Of a DNA stretch of 48,453 nucleotides, positions 8,687 through 48,436 are shown piece after piece; the stretch's first letter is position 1; every line of letters starts with the position of its first letter. The notes beneath the pieces were generated by a model that searched no databases, was not told the origin of the DNA, and worked only from the letters and a program-made list of their open reading frames with translations. The position numbers and the translations under genes are program-made. This DNA is from a virus. The DNA lies in IMG/VR virus record IMGVR_UViG_3300037628_000183, positions 1-48,453 of that record; one strand, given 5' to 3'.

Positions 8687-9111
8687 TCTCTCACCCGCAC
8701 GTACTCCCATACGATGCCGTATTCTGAGGACGTATCTACGTCGTCGCTGGTGATATCGTCTGAGTAGCCGTCTACCTTGATGATACCAGCTACCCGTGCG
8801 GGTGTCACCGAGCCGCTGCGAGCGCGCCATAGCGCTGCACTCTTGCGGTGACCTTCGGCAATCTGTGAAAGCGTCTCTTTGTGCGGCCCCTCGCCCAGGT
8901 CGGCATATTGTGTCCAGATAGCGGCCAGTGCCTCAAATCCAGCAGCGACGGCCCTCTGCCACTCGCCCTCGAGTGTGACCAAGCCACTTAACTCATTATC
9001 TGAAAAGTTGCCATTCCCAGGCTTAGGGCCGCTGTCTATTTCCGTATCCTGCAAGGCAAAGCGCACCCGGTCGCGATCGGCGGTGAGCGCATCGTCGTAG
9101 GTGAAAGCCAT
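8683..9111 (-). CDS. Head-tail adaptor (connector) protein
   Basis: 142 residues, mostly helical: D-R-D-R-V-R-F-A-L-Q-D-T-E, then N-F-S-D-N-E-L, a helix-rich centre with A-A-G-F-E-A-L-A-A-I-W-T-Q-Y-A, and a polar tail. The opening 'R-x-x-V-R-x-x-L-x-D-T' plus 'S-D-x-E-L' is typical of gp6/gp15-type adaptors that dock under the portal. Its ATG overlaps the TAA of the small zinc protein (TAATG). Confidence 0.6.
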   Translation of the reverse strand: MAFTYDDALTADRDRVRFALQDTEIDSGPKPGNGNFSDNELSGLVTLEGEWQRAVAAGFEALAAIWTQYADLGEGPHKETLSQIAEGHRKSAALWRARSGSVTPARVAGIIKVDGYSDDITSDDVDTSSEYGIVWEYVRVRE

Positions 9112-18563: not shown

Positions 18564-19739
18564 TCACTCCACCCGCCTCGGCTCCAGGCCCATCTGGGAC
18601 AGGCGCTCCAATGTCACCGCGCAGTAGGACGGATGTATCTCAATTCCAAAACAGCGGCGGTGAAGTTGCTCGCAGGCTACGGCGGTTGTGCCGGAACCGA
18701 GGAAGGGGTCAAGAACAATACTAGCGGGAGGGGCACTGTTGCGCATCGCGCGAACAACTAATTCAACCGGCTTCTGAGTCGGGTGGAATTCATTAGCCAT
18801 CGCCCTGTCTATATCCCAAACTGTGACTTCGTTACTTGGCCCAAACCAATACGGCGCTTCCCCCTTCTTGAAACAATAGGCAATTGGCTCATGCTTCTGC
18901 TTATACTGACTTCCCATCGCCCCAAACTGAGCAAGGTTCTTATTCCAAATAATGAGAGCCCGCTGAATAAATCCGTTGTCCGCCAACGAGTTATACACCG
19001 ACCTAGCGTTCGCGTCCGCGAACGCTAGGTATAGAGTCGCCTTGTCCTCTGTAAAACGATCAATCAATGGAAGAGAAGCCGCGTACATATTAACCTCGTC
19101 GTCGTTCTCCAGCATAGCCCACTTCTTGGTTCCGCCTGTATATTTCACGCCATACGGCGGATCGGTGAAACAGAAGGACGCCTTCTCCCCACCCATCACC
19201 CGCTCCACCACAGCCCCGTCGGTGCAATCCCCACAAACCAGCCGATGCGCTCCAATCTCCCACAGCTCGCCCGTTTCAACCCGCCACTTCTCTTGCAACT
19301 CCGCCGCCTTGTCAACCTGCGCCCCAGGATCGGCTACTGGCTCCCCCAGGCTCAGGCCCTCATCCTGCGCCAGCCTCTCCAGCAGCGCCTTTACCGCCTC
19401 GCTCTCAGTCTCTACCGTCTTGAGCAAGGCATCGAGCGCATCAGATTCGGCTTCTGCGAGGGCGGCTATGGGGTCGAGGGTTGCCAATATCAGGCGCTCC
19501 TGCGCCTCTGTCCACTTGCCTACCAGCACCGGCACTGGCCCATCGTGGCTGATCTCTTGGCGCAGGTGGCCATCTATGAGCCTGCCGGTGGTCTCGTTGT
19601 AAAGCAGCGCCCCGGCCCAGCCCACTTCGCCGATGACCGCCTCCAGCGCGTCCTTCTGCGCCTTCGGGTGGCGTCGCCAGTTCGCCGGGTTGGGCGTGAG
19701 GGTCTTAGGATCAATCCATTCCAGCCGTAGATTGCCCAC
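18564..19739 (-). CDS. ParB-like domain fused to a DNA methyltransferase
   Basis: 391 residues. Residues ~1-135 form a ParB/Srx-type domain (I-D-G-H-L-R at 55-60). The rest is an amino-methyltransferase of the beta order: motif IV D-P-P-Y-G (193-197), H-P-T-Q-K-P (319-324) and motif I D-P-F-L-G-S-G-T-T (344-352). It would methylate adenine N6 or cytosine N4, probably to protect phage DNA from restriction or to mark sites for packaging. The fusion is known in phages. No partner endonuclease lies beside it, so it is an orphan enzyme; target sequence unknown. Confidence 0.82.
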   Translation of the reverse strand: MGNLRLEWIDPKTLTPNPANWRRHPKAQKDALEAVIGEVGWAGALLYNETTGRLIDGHLRQEISHDGPVPVLVGKWTEAQERLILATLDPIAALAEAESDALDALLKTVETESEAVKALLERLAQDEGLSLGEPVADPGAQVDKAAELQEKWRVETGELWEIGAHRLVCGDCTDGAVVERVMGGEKASFCFTDPPYGVKYTGGTKKWAMLENDDEVNMYAASLPLIDRFTEDKATLYLAFADANARSVYNSLADNGFIQRALIIWNKNLAQFGAMGSQYKQKHEPIAYCFKKGEAPYWFGPSNEVTVWDIDRAMANEFHPTQKPVELVVRAMRNSAPPASIVLDPFLGSGTTAVACEQLHRRCFGIEIHPSYCAVTLERLSQMGLEPRRVE

Positions 19740-25354: not shown

Positions 25355-25411
25355 TATGGCCTCCCGAATATTAGTTTTGCGTAGCGATACAACGAGATCC
25401 TTGGCACCCTC

Positions 25412-25441
25412 ATTATAGCACAGAATAGGCTTGTTTGTCAA
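25412..25441 (-). promoter_or_regulatory. Late-block consensus promoter
   Basis: Minus-strand TTGACA (25441-25436), 18-bp spacer and TATAAT (25417-25412), with TGC before the -10 (extended -10). The 16 bases covering the -10 are identical to those of the promoter at 40839. Transcription would start near 25405, about 50 bases before the GTG. Confidence 0.75.
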
Positions 25442-25455
25442 GAAGGAATTGCCTA

Positions 25456-25483
25456 TTGACTTTTCTCCAAAAAGTAGTATAAT
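25456..25483 (+). promoter_or_regulatory. Early-block divergent promoter
   Basis: TTGACT (25456-25461), 16-bp spacer, TATAAT (25478-25483). It is back-to-back with the late promoter; the two -35 boxes are only 14 bp apart, so the promoters probably compete or share control. The -10 context GTAGTATAAT also occurs in the operator-bearing promoter at 30125. Confidence 0.7.
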
Positions 25484-25489
25484 ATAGTT

Positions 25490-25706
25490 GGATAGACCGC
25501 CCGCGGAAGTATTACGGAGGCTATCCCCCCTAGCCCTGGTTAGTCCCAGGGCTACTTAAAAACTCAATGGCTCTCACCAGGGCGCAATAGCAGCAAACAA
25601 ACGCAAGACCATGATTTTCTCATAGGTCGGCGAGTCGCGCAAAGTGTTTGCGTTTGTTCGCTTGCCCGACCTGGTGGCCGGCCTATGAGAAAGTGATGGT
25701 CTTTTT
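25490..25706 (+). ncRNA. Structured leader or small RNA ending in a long terminator
   Basis: This is the transcribed part of the 372-bp gene-free stretch 25355-25726. From the 5' end: hairpin GGATAG/CTATCC (25490-25527), then a perfect 9-bp hairpin TAGCCCTGG/CCAGGGCTA (around 25530-25554), then an ~95-base irregular terminator (25607-25706). An upstream segment GCAAACAAACGCAA (25593-25606) is almost fully complementary to 25648-25661 inside that terminator, so an alternative anti-terminator fold is possible. It could be a free small RNA or an attenuator for the HNH gene. Confidence 0.55.
25607..25706 (+). terminator. Long terminator hairpin before the HNH gene
   Basis: Stems: GACCAT/ATGGTC (25607-25612 with 25696-25701), TTTCTCATAGG/CCTATGAGAAA, an inner TCGG-CGAG/CTTG-CCCGA stem, and CGCAAA/TTTGCG at the tip. 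The base is followed by five T (25702-25706). The HNH ribosome-binding site is just beyond. Confidence 0.65.
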
Positions 25707-25726
25707 GCTTAAGGAGATTCTCCATT

Positions 25727-26464
25727 ATGTCACAATCACTGGGTAAACGCTTCTGGAGTAAGGTAAGAATAGGCACTCTAGATAATTGCTGGGAATGGCA
25801 GGCCGGCGACGACGGATCAGGTTATGGGCTTTTCCATTTTCAAGGAAAACAGCGCCGAGCACACCGCGTGTCTTGGATGCTGTGGCATGGCAAAGTCCCC
25901 AATGGAATGTTTGTATGCCACCACTGCGATAACCCCAGTTGTGTTAATCCAAGACACCTGTTTCTAGGTACTGCTGCCGACAACTCAATCGACAAGATGC
26001 GAAAAGGACGCCATAAATCACCGTGGCCCTGCCGTTTTAATTCATCGCAGATCGCTGAGATTAGAAAGACGTACACTGAAAAACAAGTAACACAAGAGCA
26101 ACTAGCACAGAAATATAGCGTGTCTGTATCTACCATCAACCGGATTGTACGCGGCAAGGGATATGCCTGGGTAGGCGACTTCACCAAAGGAAAACAACTG
26201 CGATTGCCAGGACAATTAGCCAGGAGAAAACTCACATCTTCACAAGTAGTTGAACTTAGACAAGTTTATGCCACGGAGCAAGTACACCAGAAGGAACTAG
26301 CCAAAAGATACAATGTAAGTCCAACTACAATTGGTGAGATTATAAGAGGTGAAAAATACGCTGAAGTTGATGGTCCAATAACATATAAAGGCAAGGGCAA
26401 TTACTCACCTCGCCCGCTCCCCGGCCTGACGCTGGAGATGCAGGCGGCGCTTGAATTAGAATAA
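25727..26464 (+). CDS. HNH homing endonuclease with two helix-turn-helix repeats
   Basis: 245 residues. The HNH_3-type core spans ~45-90: R-A-H-R-V-S-W, then V-C-H-H-C-D-N-P-S-C-V-N-P-R-H-L-F-L-G-T with Cys/His zinc ligands and Asn74/His77, then G-R-H. Two similar DNA-binding repeats follow (~105-150 and ~165-210; S-S-Q-I-A-E-I-R and S-S-Q-V-V-E-L-R, each ending in an I-x-R-G-x-x-Y helix-turn-helix). It is probably a free-standing mobile nuclease. The middle is AT-richer than its neighbours. AAGGAG is ten bases before the ATG. Confidence 0.82.
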   Translation: MSQSLGKRFWSKVRIGTLDNCWEWQAGDDGSGYGLFHFQGKQRRAHRVSWMLWHGKVPNGMFVCHHCDNPSCVNPRHLFLGTAADNSIDKMRKGRHKSPWPCRFNSSQIAEIRKTYTEKQVTQEQLAQKYSVSVSTINRIVRGKGYAWVGDFTKGKQLRLPGQLARRKLTSSQVVELRQVYATEQVHQKELAKRYNVSPTTIGEIIRGEKYAEVDGPITYKGKGNYSPRPLPGLTLEMQAALELE

Positions 26465-38187: not shown

Positions 38188-38448
38188 GTGACACTAAATG
38201 AGGCACGCGAAGTCTTAGAGAGTGCAGTGTGGGCACATGAAACGCCGCTCGTCGCATTGTTTGATGAGCTTGTGAAACTGCGCGATGAGCCAGTCGCTGA
38301 CAGGGACACAGGGAGGGAGTATCCAAGCAAGATAACACGGGCATTCGCAGATTATATGCAGGCCCACGTCTCCAGCGGGCGCGTGGTGCAGTTGTTGATC
38401 AATCTGCGGCAGCAGAACGGGATGCCGCTGTATGCGTTGCAGAGTTGA
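38188..38448 (+). CDS. Small helical protein
   Basis: 86 residues from GTG (GAGG upstream). Helices L-N-E-A-R-E-V-L-E-S-A-V-W and F-D-E-L-V-K-L. The stop overlaps the -35 box of the next promoter. It closes this operon. Confidence 0.42.
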   Translation: MTLNEAREVLESAVWAHETPLVALFDELVKLRDEPVADRDTGREYPSKITRAFADYMQAHVSSGRVVQLLINLRQQNGMPLYALQS

Positions 38449-38473
38449 CAAATTCTACAAAGTAGTGTAAAAT
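38445..38473 (+). promoter_or_regulatory. Sigma-70 promoter
   Basis: TTGACA (38445-38450), 17-bp spacer, TAAAAT (38468-38473). The spacer contains the inverted repeat CTACAAAGTAG (38455-38465), which resembles half-sites of the operator at 30143. Confidence 0.75.
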
Positions 38474-38479
38474 ATGAGT

Positions 38480-38605
38480 GAAGGAAAAGCCTGTAGCGGG
38501 CTAGATAGTGGCATACAAGCAACCGTTTTTTGGGGTTGTCGCGTAGCCTCCCTGAGTGCCAGGGACGCTACGGGGCTACGAGATAACCCCAAAGGGCGGT
38601 TTTTG
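38480..38605 (+). ncRNA. Structured leader or small RNA with terminator
   Basis: Begins just after the promoter. Outer stem AACCG-TTT-TTT-GGGGTT with AACCCC-AAA-GGG-CGGTT (38521-38537 with 38585-38601; three G-U pairs) is followed by a T run (38600-38604), a terminator. Inside are CGTAGCC/GGCTACG and TCCCTG/CAGGGA. CGTAGC could pair with either of two GCTACG copies (38567-38572 or 38575-38580), so two folds are possible. The Shine-Dalgarno site of the next gene is only ten bases beyond. Confidence 0.55.
38521..38605 (+). terminator. Terminator ahead of the SWIM-domain gene
   Basis: A 17-bp stem with the T run TTTTTG at its base. It sits between a consensus promoter and the gene at 38621, so most transcripts may stop here unless the stem is disrupted. 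Confidence 0.6.
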
Positions 38606-38620
38606 TTTTGAAAGGAGATT

Positions 38621-39763: not shown

Positions 39764-40523
39764 CTTCTCGCAGTCCGTCAAGGCGCAGGAGGCGCTTCGG
39801 GCTGAGATGTACGGCGTACCGCAAGCATCAACCTGTCCTGCCTGTGGTGGCCTGGGCGTGGTGCGGACAGGCGTACAGCCTGGCGAACCAGAGTTCGGCA
39901 AGTTTACGCCCTGCGACGTTTGCGGCGAGAACCGCCACCTCCAATACATCACGGCGAACTGTGGACTGGCGGGCGCGGAACTGAACAACCGGTTGACAGT
40001 ATGGAGCACTAATGCCGGTGGACAGTTGAGCAAGCAACGGCTGGCGGCGAAGCGTGCAATTGAGGACGCGGTCTGCAACCGTTGCGGCTTCGTCTCATTC
40101 TACGGCGACTTTGGCGGCGGCAAGACACTGGCGCTACAGATCATCGTCAATGAGATGAGGCATAAGCAGGTCGAAGCATTCTATGCACCGTTCGCGTCGG
40201 TACTGGACCATCTGCGCTCGCTGTTTCGCAGCGATAGCAAGTCGTCCGGCTTCTGGCAGCGGCTGCTCGATATTCCCGTGCTGGCGCTGGACGAGGTTAC
40301 GCGGTTTCACGATACGGACTGGGCGCAAGAGCGGCTTTGGGTCTTGGCAGATACGCGGTATAGGCGGATCGGCTCGCATCTGACGGTGTTTGCCACGAAC
40401 GATGACCCGACTGTGAGCTTGCCAACTTCTGAGCCGGTTGGGTATTTGTATAGTAGGATGAGGCAGGGCTGCCTGGTAGAGTTACGCGGCGACATGAGAA
40501 ACCCGCCGCCCGTGAGCCTGTAG
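39690..40523 (+). CDS. DnaC/DnaI-like helicase loader with N-terminal zinc finger
   Basis: 277 residues. The zinc finger is C-P-A-C-G-G (49-54) and C-D-V-C-G-E (75-80). The AAA+ core has Walker A G-D-F-G-G-G-K-T (139-146), Walker B V-L-A-L-D-E-V (197-203) and a sensor-1-like V-F-A-T-N-D (233-238). It would load the host replicative helicase at the phage origin. The start overlaps the initiator gene by 74 bases, with AAGGAGG before the ATG. The gene order initiator-then-loader is typical of phages without their own polymerase. Confidence 0.78.
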   Translation: MEPNTNQQIRERPTTGRHFSASTLDFSQSVKAQEALRAEMYGVPQASTCPACGGLGVVRTGVQPGEPEFGKFTPCDVCGENRHLQYITANCGLAGAELNNRLTVWSTNAGGQLSKQRLAAKRAIEDAVCNRCGFVSFYGDFGGGKTLALQIIVNEMRHKQVEAFYAPFASVLDHLRSLFRSDSKSSGFWQRLLDIPVLALDEVTRFHDTDWAQERLWVLADTRYRRIGSHLTVFATNDDPTVSLPTSEPVGYLYSRMRQGCLVELRGDMRNPPPVSL

Positions 40524-40541
40524 CCGAAAGGAGAAAACAAG

Positions 40542-40784
40542 ATGGATGATGATGTGATACTTGCCAGGCAACTTCGACTTGCCGTCGTGACAAATGTTTT
40601 TGACCAGGGCTTGTTGGATGAGGGGGCCGTGAGAGGGTTGCTGGCCGGGCCGTTATCGCCTGGCGATGACAGCACGATCTATGATGATTCTGCCTTGCTC
40701 GGCGACCCTGACGGCCTGGAAAAGATAGCCAGTAGCACCCGTGAGCCTGTAGCCTGCTGCGGTTGCCGCGCAGACTCGCAATGA
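40542..40784 (+). CDS. Small protein, unknown function
   Basis: 80 residues, acidic. L-A-R-Q-L-R-L-A-V-V-T-N-V-F-D-Q-G-L-L is a helix; C-C-G-C near the end may bind metal. AAAGGAG before the ATG. It ends ~55 bases before the next promoter; a 17-codon ORF there is not counted as a gene. Confidence 0.42.
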   Translation: MDDDVILARQLRLAVVTNVFDQGLLDEGAVRGLLAGPLSPGDDSTIYDDSALLGDPDGLEKIASSTREPVACCGCRADSQ

Positions 40785-40838
40785 AGCGGAGCGTGGCAGC
40801 CGACGGCGCAGAGACAAAGGAGGAGACGAAGTAGCCGG

Positions 40839-40867
40839 TTGACATTGTTATGCTTCTGTGCTATAAT
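40839..40867 (+). promoter_or_regulatory. Consensus promoter of the HNH cassette
   Basis: TTGACA (40839-40844), 17-bp spacer, TATAAT (40862-40867), with TGC before the -10. TTCTGTGCTATAATGA (40854-40869) is identical to the late promoter on the other strand (25425-25410). Confidence 0.82.
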
Positions 40868-40874
40868 GAAAATA

Positions 40875-41020
40875 CCTAGGCAGATGAAAGCAGGGGCGTT
40901 TTGTTTTTATGCCACCAATGCTTCATCACTACGAAAAGTTTTCGTAGATAAAGCGCCTCTTGTGAGCGGGATTAGTCCCTGTCATCTGCCTAGGAAACGG
41001 TGGCAAACTCACAGGAGGCG
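40875..41020 (+). ncRNA. Riboswitch-like leader controlling the second HNH gene
   Basis: A perfect 13-bp stem CCTAGGCAGATGA/TCATCTGCCTAGG (40875-40887/40982-40994) encloses a 9-bp hairpin CTACGAAAA/TTTTCGTAG (40929-40947). A crossing 13-bp stem (one G-U pair) pairs 40954-40966 with 41008-41020 and covers the Shine-Dalgarno AGGAGG (41013-41018). GCCACC (40911-40916) can also pair with GGTGGC (40999-41004). Since the two long stems cross, they are either alternatives or a pseudoknot. In the form with the second stem the HNH gene should not be translated. Confidence 0.62.
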
Positions 41021-41027
41021 TTTTGTC

Positions 41028-41531
41028 ATGAAGATCAATGAAAGCAGGGAAGGAATCTGGAAAAGCATCCCAAGGCATGAAGATTACAAAGTGTCAAGTT
41101 TGGGATATATATGGTCATCAAAGACAGACAAGATTCTCAAACTAATATTGCAGGAAGGCTATGGACATGTCTTCTTATATGATGGAGAGGGGAATAGCGT
41201 AAAGATGCGCGTGCACCATGCCGTTCTATTGGCTTTCATTGGAGAGCCATTATCTGATCAGGAATGCAGGCACTTGAATGGAGATCGAAGTGATAACAGA
41301 TTAGAAAATTTGGCCTGGGGTACAAGGTTAGAAAACGTGCAAGACAGGCGAAGACATGGTAGAATGCCAATTCCACATGAGAGCAAATTTACAAGGCTAA
41401 TACCACAGGACATTCCTGTTATTCGGCGACTTCAGGGAGCATACTCATCGCGTACAGTTGCCTCAATGTTTAAGACCTCGCACACAACTATTCAGAAAAT
41501 CTGGCGTAGAGAACGCTGGAAAGGATACTAA
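41028..41531 (+). CDS. HNH endonuclease with NUMOD4 and HTH
   Basis: 167 residues from the ATG at 41028 (AGGAGG nine bases upstream); an open frame extending to 40839 is the leader RNA, not protein. N-terminal NUMOD4: I-W-K-S-I-P-R-H-E-D-Y-K-V-S-S-L-G (10-26). HNH_3 core: V-H-H-A-V-L-L-A-F (62-70), C-R-H-L-N-G-D-R-S-D-N-R-L-E-N-L-A-W-G-T (~79-98). C-terminal helix-turn-helix (S-S-R-T-V-A-S-M-F-K-T-S-H-T-T-I). A free-standing homing endonuclease, AT-rich relative to its neighbours, in a cassette with its own promoter. Confidence 0.82.
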   Translation: MKINESREGIWKSIPRHEDYKVSSLGYIWSSKTDKILKLILQEGYGHVFLYDGEGNSVKMRVHHAVLLAFIGEPLSDQECRHLNGDRSDNRLENLAWGTRLENVQDRRRHGRMPIPHESKFTRLIPQDIPVIRRLQGAYSSRTVASMFKTSHTTIQKIWRRERWKGY

Positions 41532-41532
41532 T

Positions 41533-42411
41533 ATGGGTAAAACGAAGATAGAATGGTCAGAGTTTTCCTGGTCTCCTATAACCGGATGCACGCCTTGCTC
41601 ACCAGGCTGTGCTCACTGCTTTGCCCAACGCATGGCCCGCAGGCTGGCCGGACGCTGCGGCTATCCCGAAGCGCCACATCACTTTGACGTGACGTTGCAC
41701 CCTGACAGGATAGATGTACCATTGAAACGCAAGAAGCCAACCATGTTTTTTGTGTGCTCAATGAGTGACTTATTCCACGAAGATGTACCGCCCAGTTACA
41801 TTGGTACTATTGTGAACATCATGAGGCGCAGTTCGCGGCATACTTTTCAAATTCTCACTAAGCGTCCTCGGCGGATGCTTAAGCTATCAAATTGGTTGAC
41901 GGATCGTGAAGGATGGCCCGACAACGTCTGGCTCGGCGTCAGCGTCGAGAACCAGGACGCGGCGGATGAGCGGCGCGAAGATCTGGAGCGATGCCCCGCT
42001 GCCATCAAGTTCGTTTCCTACGAGCCTGCGCTTGGGCCAATAGATTGGATGGGCTGGGAGTTCGTGTCACAAATTATATCTGGGGGAGAGTCGGGGCCAG
42101 GGGCCAGGCCATCGCATCCCGACTGGCACCGGGCAACGCGGGACTTTTGCCAGGCGAATGGGATCGCCTATTTTTTCAAAGCCTGGGGCGCGTGGGCACC
42201 GTTCGGTCAACGCGAATCTATGCGCCCTCTGAACAATGTGGCCAAATGTTGGTTGGACATACGAGGCCAATCAAGTCCAACCTACAGTGCAATGATGCAT
42301 GTACCATTGGCTCTCTTCAGGGTTGGCAAAAAAGCCGCCGGCCACCTGCTCGACGGTCGTGGGCATCATGAGTTCCCGGCCGACGGCGCGGGGACGGTAG
42401 ACAGAGAATGA
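41533..42411 (+). CDS. DUF5131 (Gp37/Gp68-type) radical-SAM-like protein
   Basis: 292 residues. Opening T-K-I-E-W-S-E-F-S-W-S-P-I-T-G-C (4-19) is typical of DUF5131. C-x3-C-x2-C with Cys22, Cys26 and Cys29 (P-C-S-P-G-C-A-H-C) would hold a [4Fe-4S] cluster, as in radical SAM enzymes; Cys19 is also present. S-D-L-F-H, L-T-K-R-P-R-R-M and W-L-G-V-S-V-E-N-Q follow the family pattern. The reaction is not known. The last ~60 residues look divergent. It overlaps the next gene by ATGA. Confidence 0.72.
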   Translation: MGKTKIEWSEFSWSPITGCTPCSPGCAHCFAQRMARRLAGRCGYPEAPHHFDVTLHPDRIDVPLKRKKPTMFFVCSMSDLFHEDVPPSYIGTIVNIMRRSSRHTFQILTKRPRRMLKLSNWLTDREGWPDNVWLGVSVENQDAADERREDLERCPAAIKFVSYEPALGPIDWMGWEFVSQIISGGESGPGARPSHPDWHRATRDFCQANGIAYFFKAWGAWAPFGQRESMRPLNNVAKCWLDIRGQSSPTYSAMMHVPLALFRVGKKAAGHLLDGRGHHEFPADGAGTVDRE

Positions 42412-47353: not shown

Positions 47354-48436
47354 TCATTGCGCCTCCGTCTCTATATCAATCTGATCGCTACCGTCCTCAT
47401 TGAGCGTGACGGTAGAGGCAATGAGCTTGTATGTCCCCTCTACGCCGAAGGCCCTTGCCGTCACCAGGTCGCCCAATTCATAGTCAGCGCCATACAGGCA
47501 GGACGCTGTCTGCTCCACGTCGAAGCTGAACGCATCCCGTGCCCGCAGTTCATCCAGCCGCCTGTCGCCCGCCGCGTTCTGTGCTGCCGTGGTCTTGAGG
47601 TTGCCAGCGCCTACGAAGACTTCGATGTTGTTGCTGACACTATGGTAATCTGCCCCGGTGCGGAGGACGATGTCTCTATTGTCCTCCGCACCCGCGCCGC
47701 CCACGATCGCTACCGTCTTTTCAGCGATGCGACTGTGGCGGTAGTGCGGGTTTGACATATTGCCCCGGTCGAGTGAGAATATGACCGTCGCGCTTCTATC
47801 TGTCCCGCGCTGCCCGGTATACCAGCGAAATTGCCAGGCTTGCGCCGCCGTCTTGATGAGGTCAAAGTCACCGCCCGCTACCAGCGCCAGATCTTGCAGT
47901 TCGGTCAACAGCTTCTTGTATGCGCAACTCCAGTCCAGGGTATTCCCGTTCGCACCGTCGGCCTGAATGCTCAGACCTGTAACCGCGCCATCGCGCAAGC
48001 GGCTATTGCCGGTCGTAGCGTTGGCGCAGGCATTGTAATCTACCAGCGTTTTCATTATTGTCTCGGCAGGATCGCTGGTGAACGCCGTTCGATCCGCCGT
48101 CGCCGTGTACCAGGCTATGATACGGGTAGAGAGAAACCACATTTGACCTGGGCAATAGGCGGTGAATATATCCCGATCGGTATACTGATGCTCCTGGCTA
48201 AGATATAAGCCGCCAAAGTCACGATACCAATCTATCCCGCGTCGCTGATTGCGCCGCCATACCTCGATCTGGCTACGGTTGCTCAGTAGCGCCACAGCGG
48301 CGTGATCGCCGTGCATGTTAAACGTGAGCAGGCCGGGATAGTTGACGCGCTTAGCATAGCTCAGACGCCAGAAGTCACTCGTCTCCGCAACCAATACGCC
48401 AGCGGGTGAGTAGAAGCGTAGTTTGTAGGATGCCAA
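47354..48436 (-). CDS. Tail protein, ReqiPepy6 Gp37-like
   Basis: 360 residues as read from TTG at 48436. The frame remains open to the window edge, and a slightly longer start across the circular join is possible. The N-terminal half (S-Y-A-K-R-V-N-Y-P-G-L-L-T-F, then D-F-G-G-L-Y-L-S-Q-E, F-T-A-Y-C-P-G-Q-M-W-F-L) and the middle (W-S-C-A-Y-K-K-L-L-T-E-L-Q-D-L-A) match the Gp37-like tail family (PF14594) that sits at the siphophage tail tip. Its place after the glycosidase-like gene, when the ends are joined, fits a tail module. Confidence 0.7.
   Translation of the reverse strand: MASYKLRFYSPAGVLVAETSDFWRLSYAKRVNYPGLLTFNMHGDHAAVALLSNRSQIEVWRRNQRRGIDWYRDFGGLYLSQEHQYTDRDIFTAYCPGQMWFLSTRIIAWYTATADRTAFTSDPAETIMKTLVDYNACANATTGNSRLRDGAVTGLSIQADGANGNTLDWSCAYKKLLTELQDLALVAGGDFDLIKTAAQAWQFRWYTGQRGTDRSATVIFSLDRGNMSNPHYRHSRIAEKTVAIVGGAGAEDNRDIVLRTGADYHSVSNNIEVFVGAGNLKTTAAQNAAGDRRLDELRARDAFSFDVEQTASCLYGADYELGDLVTARAFGVEGTYKLIASTVTLNEDGSDQIDIETEAQ

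What the first reader, a model, noticed from the sequence alone, without database searches (positions are those of the whole stretch)
40839..41531. HNH gene leader with two crossing 13-bp stems, one hiding the ribosome-binding site
A consensus promoter leads to an ~146-base RNA in which 40875-40887 pairs with 40982-40994 perfectly, while 40954-40966 pairs with 41008-41020 and covers AGGAGG. A third pairing, GCCACC/GGTGGC, is possible. The arms cross, as in a switch or pseudoknot. Known parallels are T4 homing endonucleases silenced by RNA structure; a ligand or timed switch has not, to my knowledge, been described for this layout.
Basis: partly seen in the sequence, partly recalled or inferred. 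Interest (0 to 1): 0.72.

Follow-up and report, generated by a model that had tools for sequence, protein, structure and literature searches.

The report
Phage leader RNA with crossing stems
A phage DNA-cutting-enzyme gene starts with a strongly folding RNA segment that can adopt two competing shapes, one of which hides the ribosome start site; the same layout recurs in front of other genes of this phage and its relatives, so it looks like a family of RNA on/off controls rather than a quirk of one gene.

Summary
After a 12/12 consensus promoter (40839-40867), stem A (40875-40887/40982-40994, 13 Watson-Crick pairs) crosses stem B. B is 20 bp (40947-40966/41008-41027) and buries AGGAGG (41013-41018) right up to the ATG at 41028. 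No shuffle in 2000 matched this crossing pair; the + strand folds at z -7.1. It is not an HNH-family trait: 54 relatives' leaders look ordinary. In this 48-kb phage the same plan (A5, B5, A3, B3; U-tract at the end of B; then RBS) recurs before a second HNH gene (25488-25726) and before the replication operon (38474-38620); the latter's ~100-nt core is 100% identical in a relative about 82% identical there. Further copies occur in three other phages. B loops are 40-45 nt in five of six layouts, which the search did not impose. Model phages and shuffled kin gave none. Best reading: a promoter-proximal attenuator. Stem A folds first; B then forms, looks terminator-like, and here also hides the RBS. 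A simultaneous pseudoknot or an RNase III site is not excluded. T4 homing-endonuclease hairpins share the outcome, not the layout. There is no ligand evidence and no close homologue of this leader, so covariation in it is untested.

The parts
40839..40867 (+). consensus promoter TTGACA-17-TATAAT
   Evidence: 12/12 match
40872..41027 (+). leader RNA 1 (HNH1 leader), start inferred near 40874
   Evidence: fold z -6.85; crossing stems 0/2000 shuffles
40875..40887 (+). arm A5, pairs with 40982-40994
   Evidence: perfect inverted repeat
40895..40904 (+). mimic B' of the RBS-side arm (GGCGTTTTGT); alternative partner of the anti-RBS arm
   Evidence: exact direct repeat of 41017-41026; modest pairing probability
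40910..40916 (+). arm C5 (TGCCACC), pairs with 40999-41005
   Evidence: shuffle p 0.019
40929..40947 (+). local hairpin D (CTACGAAAA/TTTTCGTAG)
40947..40966 (+). arm B5 (anti-RBS), pairs with 41008-41027
   Evidence: 20 bp
40968..40979 (+). small hairpin E (GGGA/UCCC)
40982..40994 (+). arm A3, lies in the loop of B
40999..41005 (+). arm C3 (GGTGGCA)
41008..41027 (+). arm B3, contains SD AGGAGG 41013-41018 and U-tract GCGTTTTG
41028..41531 (+). HNH endonuclease gene (HNH_3; NUMOD4 just below cut-off), 167 aa
   Evidence: Pfam
25456..25483 (+). promoter of leader 2 (TTGACT-16-TATAAT)
25488..25726 (+). leader 2: A 25596-25607/25647-25658, B 25605-25631/25677-25703, C 25574-25581/25670-25677; before second HNH gene 25727-26464
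38445..38473 (+). promoter of leader 3 (TTGACA-17-TAAAAT)
38474..38620 (+). leader 3: A 38490-38498/38566-38574, B 38521-38540/38582-38601; before the replication operon (genes 38621, 38885)

Best explanation
40872-41027 is a cis-acting RNA control leader of the attenuator type, one of several copies of a layout used at promoters of this phage group. Proposed steps. (1) RNA polymerase starts at about 40874, so the first nucleotides are arm A5 (inferred from the promoter). (2) When about 125 nt are out, A5 pairs with A3, closing a domain in which the anti-RBS arm B5 is held inside, in one fold by the RBS-mimic at 40895-40904 (predicted). (3) About 15-30 nt later B3 emerges; B then is the more stable fold: a 20-bp stem with a 41-nt loop ending in GGCGUUUUG. 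It can act as a weak intrinsic terminator and, if transcription passes, it buries AGGAGG and abuts the AUG, so little HNH enzyme is made (predicted). (4) Expression therefore depends on how long the early A/C fold survives against B; transcription speed, a pause, a bound ribosome or an unknown factor would set the balance (inferred). In the sister leaders the RBS lies just after the stem, so there B would act mainly as a terminator; the HNH1 copy has its RBS inside the stem and would be controlled twice.
For: Structure far beyond chance: z -6.85, crossing pair 0/2000 shuffles. Early fold significant on its own: -51 kcal/mol, z -4.3, 0/300. Prefix folding gives A as optimum for RNA ends 40991-41015 and B from 41021; the same order of events in leader 2, L085a and L046, transiently in L084. 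Fold strength biased to the transcribed strand in 5 of 6 leaders. Recurrence of promoter + crossing stems + U-tract: 6 leaders in 163 promoter-like sites of kin phages, 0/348 in lambda, HK022, P22 and part of T4, 1/530 in other loci, 0/1959 in shuffled kin (Fisher p 8e-5 and 2e-7). B-loop length, not imposed, is 41, 42, 41, 45, 40 and 32 nt. L1 and L085a match in every spacing, and only 1 of 300 shuffles reaches their alignment score. Leader 3 is identical over its core in G001 while the surrounding homologous stretch is about 82% identical; its three substitutions would all change the amino acid if it were read as an ORF, so the constraint is not on a protein.
Against: No homologue of leader 1 close enough to show compensatory changes within it. 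The detector was written after seeing three window leaders and L085a; only L084 and L046 came up unlooked-for. In L1 the U-tract is short (UUUU) and the 41-nt loop is long for an efficient intrinsic terminator. A and B could coexist in L1 (59-nt linker), in which case there is no switch. The mimic B' has only about 0.29 mean pairing probability in the early fold and none is seen in L084. In L084 the + strand fold is weak (z -1.3) and the A fold, not B, wins for the longest RNA tried. Prefix MFEs are not a kinetic simulation. No expression data exist.
Confidence: 0.55

Rival explanations
1. Static pseudoknot: A, B and perhaps C form together and keep the SD closed; there is no switch, only strong repression and a protected 5' end.
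For: Linkers in L1, L085a, L084 and L3 are long enough (59, 58, 33, 22 nt). C recurs with combined p 0.006. Helix energies A about -23 and B about -33 kcal/mol make coexistence energetically plausible.
Against: In leader 2 the A and B arms overlap by 3 nt, and in L046 they are adjacent, so full coexistence is not possible there. Early folds use B5 in other pairings.
Confidence: 0.22
2. T4-type translational silencer only: B simply hides the HNH ribosome site from read-through RNA; A is incidental.
For: SD and AUG lie in B; documented for I-TevI, segB and mobE (PMC2988022, PMC3014915).
Against: The promoter is upstream of all arms, so its RNA is silenced too; A is a perfect 13-mer (0/2000 shuffles for the crossing pair); non-endonuclease genes carry the layout.
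Confidence: 0.1
3. RNase III processing element: the 20-27-bp duplex B is cut to free or trim the mRNA, as in the lambda N leader (own knowledge).
For: B is 20 bp or more in L1, L2, L3, L085a and L046.
Against: L084 B is 14 bp; this does not explain the crossing A arm.
Confidence: 0.08
4. A DNA-level inverted-repeat element, or chance pairing in composition-biased DNA.
For: The minus strand also folds well.
Against: The + strand folds better in 5 of 6 leaders; stems carry G-U but no A-C mismatches; position always promoter-to-RBS; shuffles rule out chance.
Confidence: 0.05

Closest known systems
RBS-sequestering hairpins of phage homing endonucleases (I-TevI/II/III, segB, Aeh1 mobE; PMC2988022, PMC3014915)
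   Same: Endonuclease gene in a phage; SD buried in a stable RNA stem just before the AUG; low, timed expression expected.
   Different: There the late promoter removes the 5' arm; here the promoter precedes all arms, a second long stem crosses the first, and the same plan serves non-endonuclease genes.
MS2 maturation-gene leader and metastable SD-controlling structures (as discussed in PMC6733600)
   Same: A transient early fold leaves the RBS open until a more stable fold closes it; timing set by folding order.
   Different: MS2 is an RNA phage with a cloverleaf; here a DNA phage uses a 5'-terminal stem and a terminator-like stem. Kinetics here are only predicted.
Attenuator leaders (trp/bgl type; plasmid repR leaders such as pIP501, PMC4981023)
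   Same: Promoter-proximal alternative stems, the later one followed by a U-tract, upstream of the regulated (often replication) gene.
   Different: No leader peptide, antisense RNA or RNA-binding protein found; arms cross; loop of 40-45 nt; RBS inside the stem in the HNH1 copy.
H-type pseudoknot riboswitches that sequester the SD, such as preQ1 and SAM-II (own knowledge)
   Same: Crossing stems near the SD.
   Different: Stems are far longer, no conserved core sequence, no Rfam match reaching a family's gathering score.

Membership tests
T4-type homing-endonuclease hairpin | SD/AUG sequestered in a stable helix | tested here: met
   Stem B covers 41013-41018 and abuts the ATG
T4-type homing-endonuclease hairpin | promoter placed so that its RNA lacks the 5' arm | tested here: not met
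   The only consensus promoter nearby is upstream of all arms
T4-type homing-endonuclease hairpin | reduced translation shown experimentally | not testable with these tools
   no bench data
Transcription attenuator | two mutually exclusive folds in the leader | tested here: inconclusive
   Predicted early and late folds; exclusive in leader 2 by overlap of arms; coexistence possible in L1
Transcription attenuator | later fold is an intrinsic terminator (GC stem plus U-tract) | tested here: inconclusive
   U-tract at the end of B3 in all six layouts but 32-45-nt loops; L1 has only UUUU
Transcription attenuator | known signal (peptide, protein, antisense RNA, ligand) | tested here: inconclusive
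   No antisense promoter-like site in L1; frame 40884-41027 is in frame with HNH without stop or clear SD; proteins and ligands could not be tested
Known Rfam family / riboswitch | covariance-model match | tested here: not met
   No match at gathering score; only sub-threshold matches at loose setting
HNH-family-linked leader | structured leader present upstream of related HNH genes | tested here: not met
   54 relatives not enriched
Crossing-stem leader of this phage group (proposed here) | promoter, A5, B5, A3, B3 with U-tract, RBS, gene | tested here: met
Crossing-stem leader of this phage group (proposed here) | compensatory base changes between aligned homologues | tested here: inconclusive
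   L1 and L085a keep both stems with different sequence and the same spacing, but their alignment leans on the structure; the G001 copy of leader 3 is nearly identical

The most novel reading that the evidence does not exclude
An undescribed family of phage leader RNAs in which a 5' stem and a terminator-like stem cross with a nearly constant 40-45-nt loop but almost no conserved sequence. It would be a protein- and ligand-free folding-order timer placed on early replication operons and captured by homing endonuclease genes.
Probability: 0.3. Interest if true: 0.8.

Novelty: new variant of a known kind. Interest (0 to 1): 0.62.

Why it matters
If true, a phage uses one structural plan with free choice of sequence at several promoters, which sequence searches and single-family covariance searches would miss, and which could give early genes a built-in clock without a dedicated regulator. 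It also shows a mobile endonuclease gene sitting behind the same type of control element as the phage's replication genes, with its ribosome site inside the stem. It is directly testable with short reporter constructs.

Tried and rejected
Rfam (gathering and loose): nothing meaningful. DNA homologues of leader 1 in phages and plasmids, and of two of its segments in viral contigs: none. HNH relatives in viral and GTDB contigs: found, but the leaders are not unusually structured. T4-type explanation: promoter position wrong. In-frame upstream start at ATG 40884: open frame but no clear SD and not a consistent feature of the other leaders. Leader 3 as a 45-aa ORF: rejected, because all three substitutions between two phages would change the amino acid and its ATG abuts the -10. 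Antisense control: no promoter-like site in L1, L3 or L085a; weak ones near L2, L084 and L046. MAFFT alignment of four leaders was uninformative. Detector hit L094:8235 rejected: no U-tract. L085:3204 and L084:9227 are promoter-proximal hairpins, but not, or only weakly, of the crossing type.

Full report
Observation. The window is a 48,453-base virus record encoding tail, capsid, portal and terminase proteins on one strand and replication and recombination genes on the other. At 40839-40867 there is a 12/12 promoter. Downstream, 40875-40887 pairs perfectly with 40982-40994, and 40947-40966 pairs with 41008-41027 over 20 continuous pairs (3 G-U), covering AGGAGG at 41013-41018 and reaching the start codon at 41028. 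The third pairing is 7 bp, 40910-40916/40999-41005. The HNH gene is 41028-41531; Pfam HNH_3 passes its cut-off and NUMOD4 falls just below it.

Chance. The 169-nt leader folds at -68 kcal/mol, z -6.85. The best crossing pair scores 33; the best of 2000 dinucleotide shuffles scores 24; it ranks first of 2415 windows of the genome. The early part alone, lacking B3, is significant (z -4.3, 0/300), as is the late part (z -7.5). The transcribed strand folds better than the other (-7.11 versus -4.59).

Two folds. Folding growing 3' ends puts A (with B' pairs and hairpins D and E) as the optimum for ends 40991-41015, and B from 41021. On the whole leader B wins by about 17 kcal/mol, and a path search gives a barrier of about 25 kcal/mol from A to B, an upper bound. 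These are predictions from energies, not kinetics. The anti-RBS arm has two possible targets, since GGCGTTTTGT occurs at 40895 and 41017, although the upstream pairing has only modest probability. A and B can also be drawn together as a pseudoknot, because the linkers are long enough.

Not an HNH trait. Relatives of this HNH protein (best 56-57%) come with ordinary leaders: 54 loci (relatives of either HNH protein), mean z -0.39 versus -0.23 for 120 control genes. Relative phage G001 (83% identical helicase loader) gave no match to this HNH protein, and its only match to the second HNH protein is a distant one (33% identity).

A layout of the phage group. A fold scan of the whole window, made without regard to promoters, put three promoter-proximal leaders among its strongest outliers: this one, one before a second HNH gene (25488-25726) and one before the replication operon (38474-38620). 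All have arms in the order A5, B5, A3, B3, a U-tract at the end of B3, and an RBS (inside B3 here, just after it in the others). Leader 3 is 100% identical to G001 from 38515 to about 38617, where the surrounding homologous stretch averages about 82%. A search with the replication gene fetched three more distant phages. One, L085, has the layout directly before the replication initiator (promoter 160-186; A 193-206/305-317; B 265-287/330-352). L084 has it before an early operon (A 4576-4587/4639-4650; B 4621-4634/4667-4680). A further phage, L046, was a hit in the scans (A 4236-4244/4285-4293; B 4246-4272/4313-4339); it has the same order of arms as leader 2 and the same early-then-late folding.

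Statistics of recurrence. Requiring a promoter, crossing stems and a U-tract gives 6 distinct leaders among 163 promoter-like sites in kin phages, 0 of 348 in lambda, HK022, P22 and 50 kb of T4, 1 of 530 in other fetched loci, and 0 of 1959 in shuffled kin (Fisher p 8e-5 and 2e-7). The criteria were written after seeing four of the leaders, so these p-values are optimistic; L084 and L046 came up without being looked for. B-loop lengths of 41, 42, 41, 45, 40 and 32 nt were not imposed (limits about 25-85). L1 and L085a agree in all spacings (59/58 between A5 and B5, 13/12 between A3 and B3), and only 1 of 300 shuffles reaches their alignment score, so they are probably homologous although stem A differs at nearly every pair. 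Pairing C recurs with combined p 0.006, which is suggestive only.

Mechanism. The position directly after the promoter, the U-tract ends, the transcribed-strand bias and two competing folds are best explained by a promoter-proximal attenuator. In the sister leaders the RBS follows the stem, so B would mainly terminate. In the HNH1 leader the RBS lies inside B, so B would both terminate weakly and block translation. What sets the balance is unknown. The lack of shared sequence disfavours a common ligand or sequence-specific protein, and no antisense promoter is seen in L1, L3 or L085a. A timer set by folding order, as for the MS2 maturation gene (discussed in PMC6733600), is the simplest remaining idea. 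Shown here: the pairings, their significance and their recurrence. Inferred: the transcription start, termination, repression and timing.

Comparison. T4 homing endonucleases and mobE hide the SD in a hairpin, but their promoter removes the 5' arm (PMC2988022, PMC3014915); that feature was tested and not met. Aeromonas phage 25 seg43 has a hairpin just upstream of an open RBS (PMC2988022), which resembles leader 2. Plasmid repR attenuators (PMC4981023) resemble the replication-operon copies but need an antisense RNA. Rfam has no match.

Limits. Whether this is a switch or a static pseudoknot stays open.

Noticed in passing
window 25488-25726: Second HNH gene leader with 12-bp and 27-bp crossing stems, MFE -105 kcal/mol for 25488-25745, terminator-like U-tract before the SD.
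   Followed up: yes
window 38474-38620: Replication-operon leader, near-identical (100% core) in relative phage G001 although noncoding; strongest fold outlier of the genome scan.
   Followed up: yes
L085 193-363; L084 4576-4705; L046 4199-4350: Same crossing-stem layout in three other metagenomic phages, before a replication initiator, an early operon gene and (about 150 nt further on) a PAPS-reductase-like gene.
   Followed up: partly
L085 3204-3370: Promoter followed by a very stable nested hairpin ending in TTTTTGTTT before an RBS (z about -8 in the scan); an attenuator-like leader with only a short (7-bp) crossing arm.
   Followed up: partly
window 25410-25441 (-) and 40839-40870 (+): Two promoters of the phage share an exact 16-nt stretch around the -10 (TTCTGTGCTATAATGA), suggesting a common origin of the HNH1 promoter.
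   Followed up: no
window 40815-41545: Promoter, leader and HNH gene (GC about 0.44 versus about 0.57 around) sit between a good RBS (AAAGGAGGAGACGAAG) and the DUF5131 start codon at 41533, which now has an RBS-like AAAGGA inside the end of the HNH gene: looks like an insertion between RBS and gene.
   Followed up: partly
window 47641-47800 (-), 18901-19060 (+), 8881-9040 (-): Other strong fold outliers in the window scan, not near one of the consensus promoters found.
   Followed up: no
window 40518-40545, 40798-40835; L026 5830-5875, 6305-6340: Recurring intergenic spacer in this phage group, GTAGCCGACGGCGC...AGAGACAAAGGAGA, carrying the RBS between early genes.
   Followed up: no
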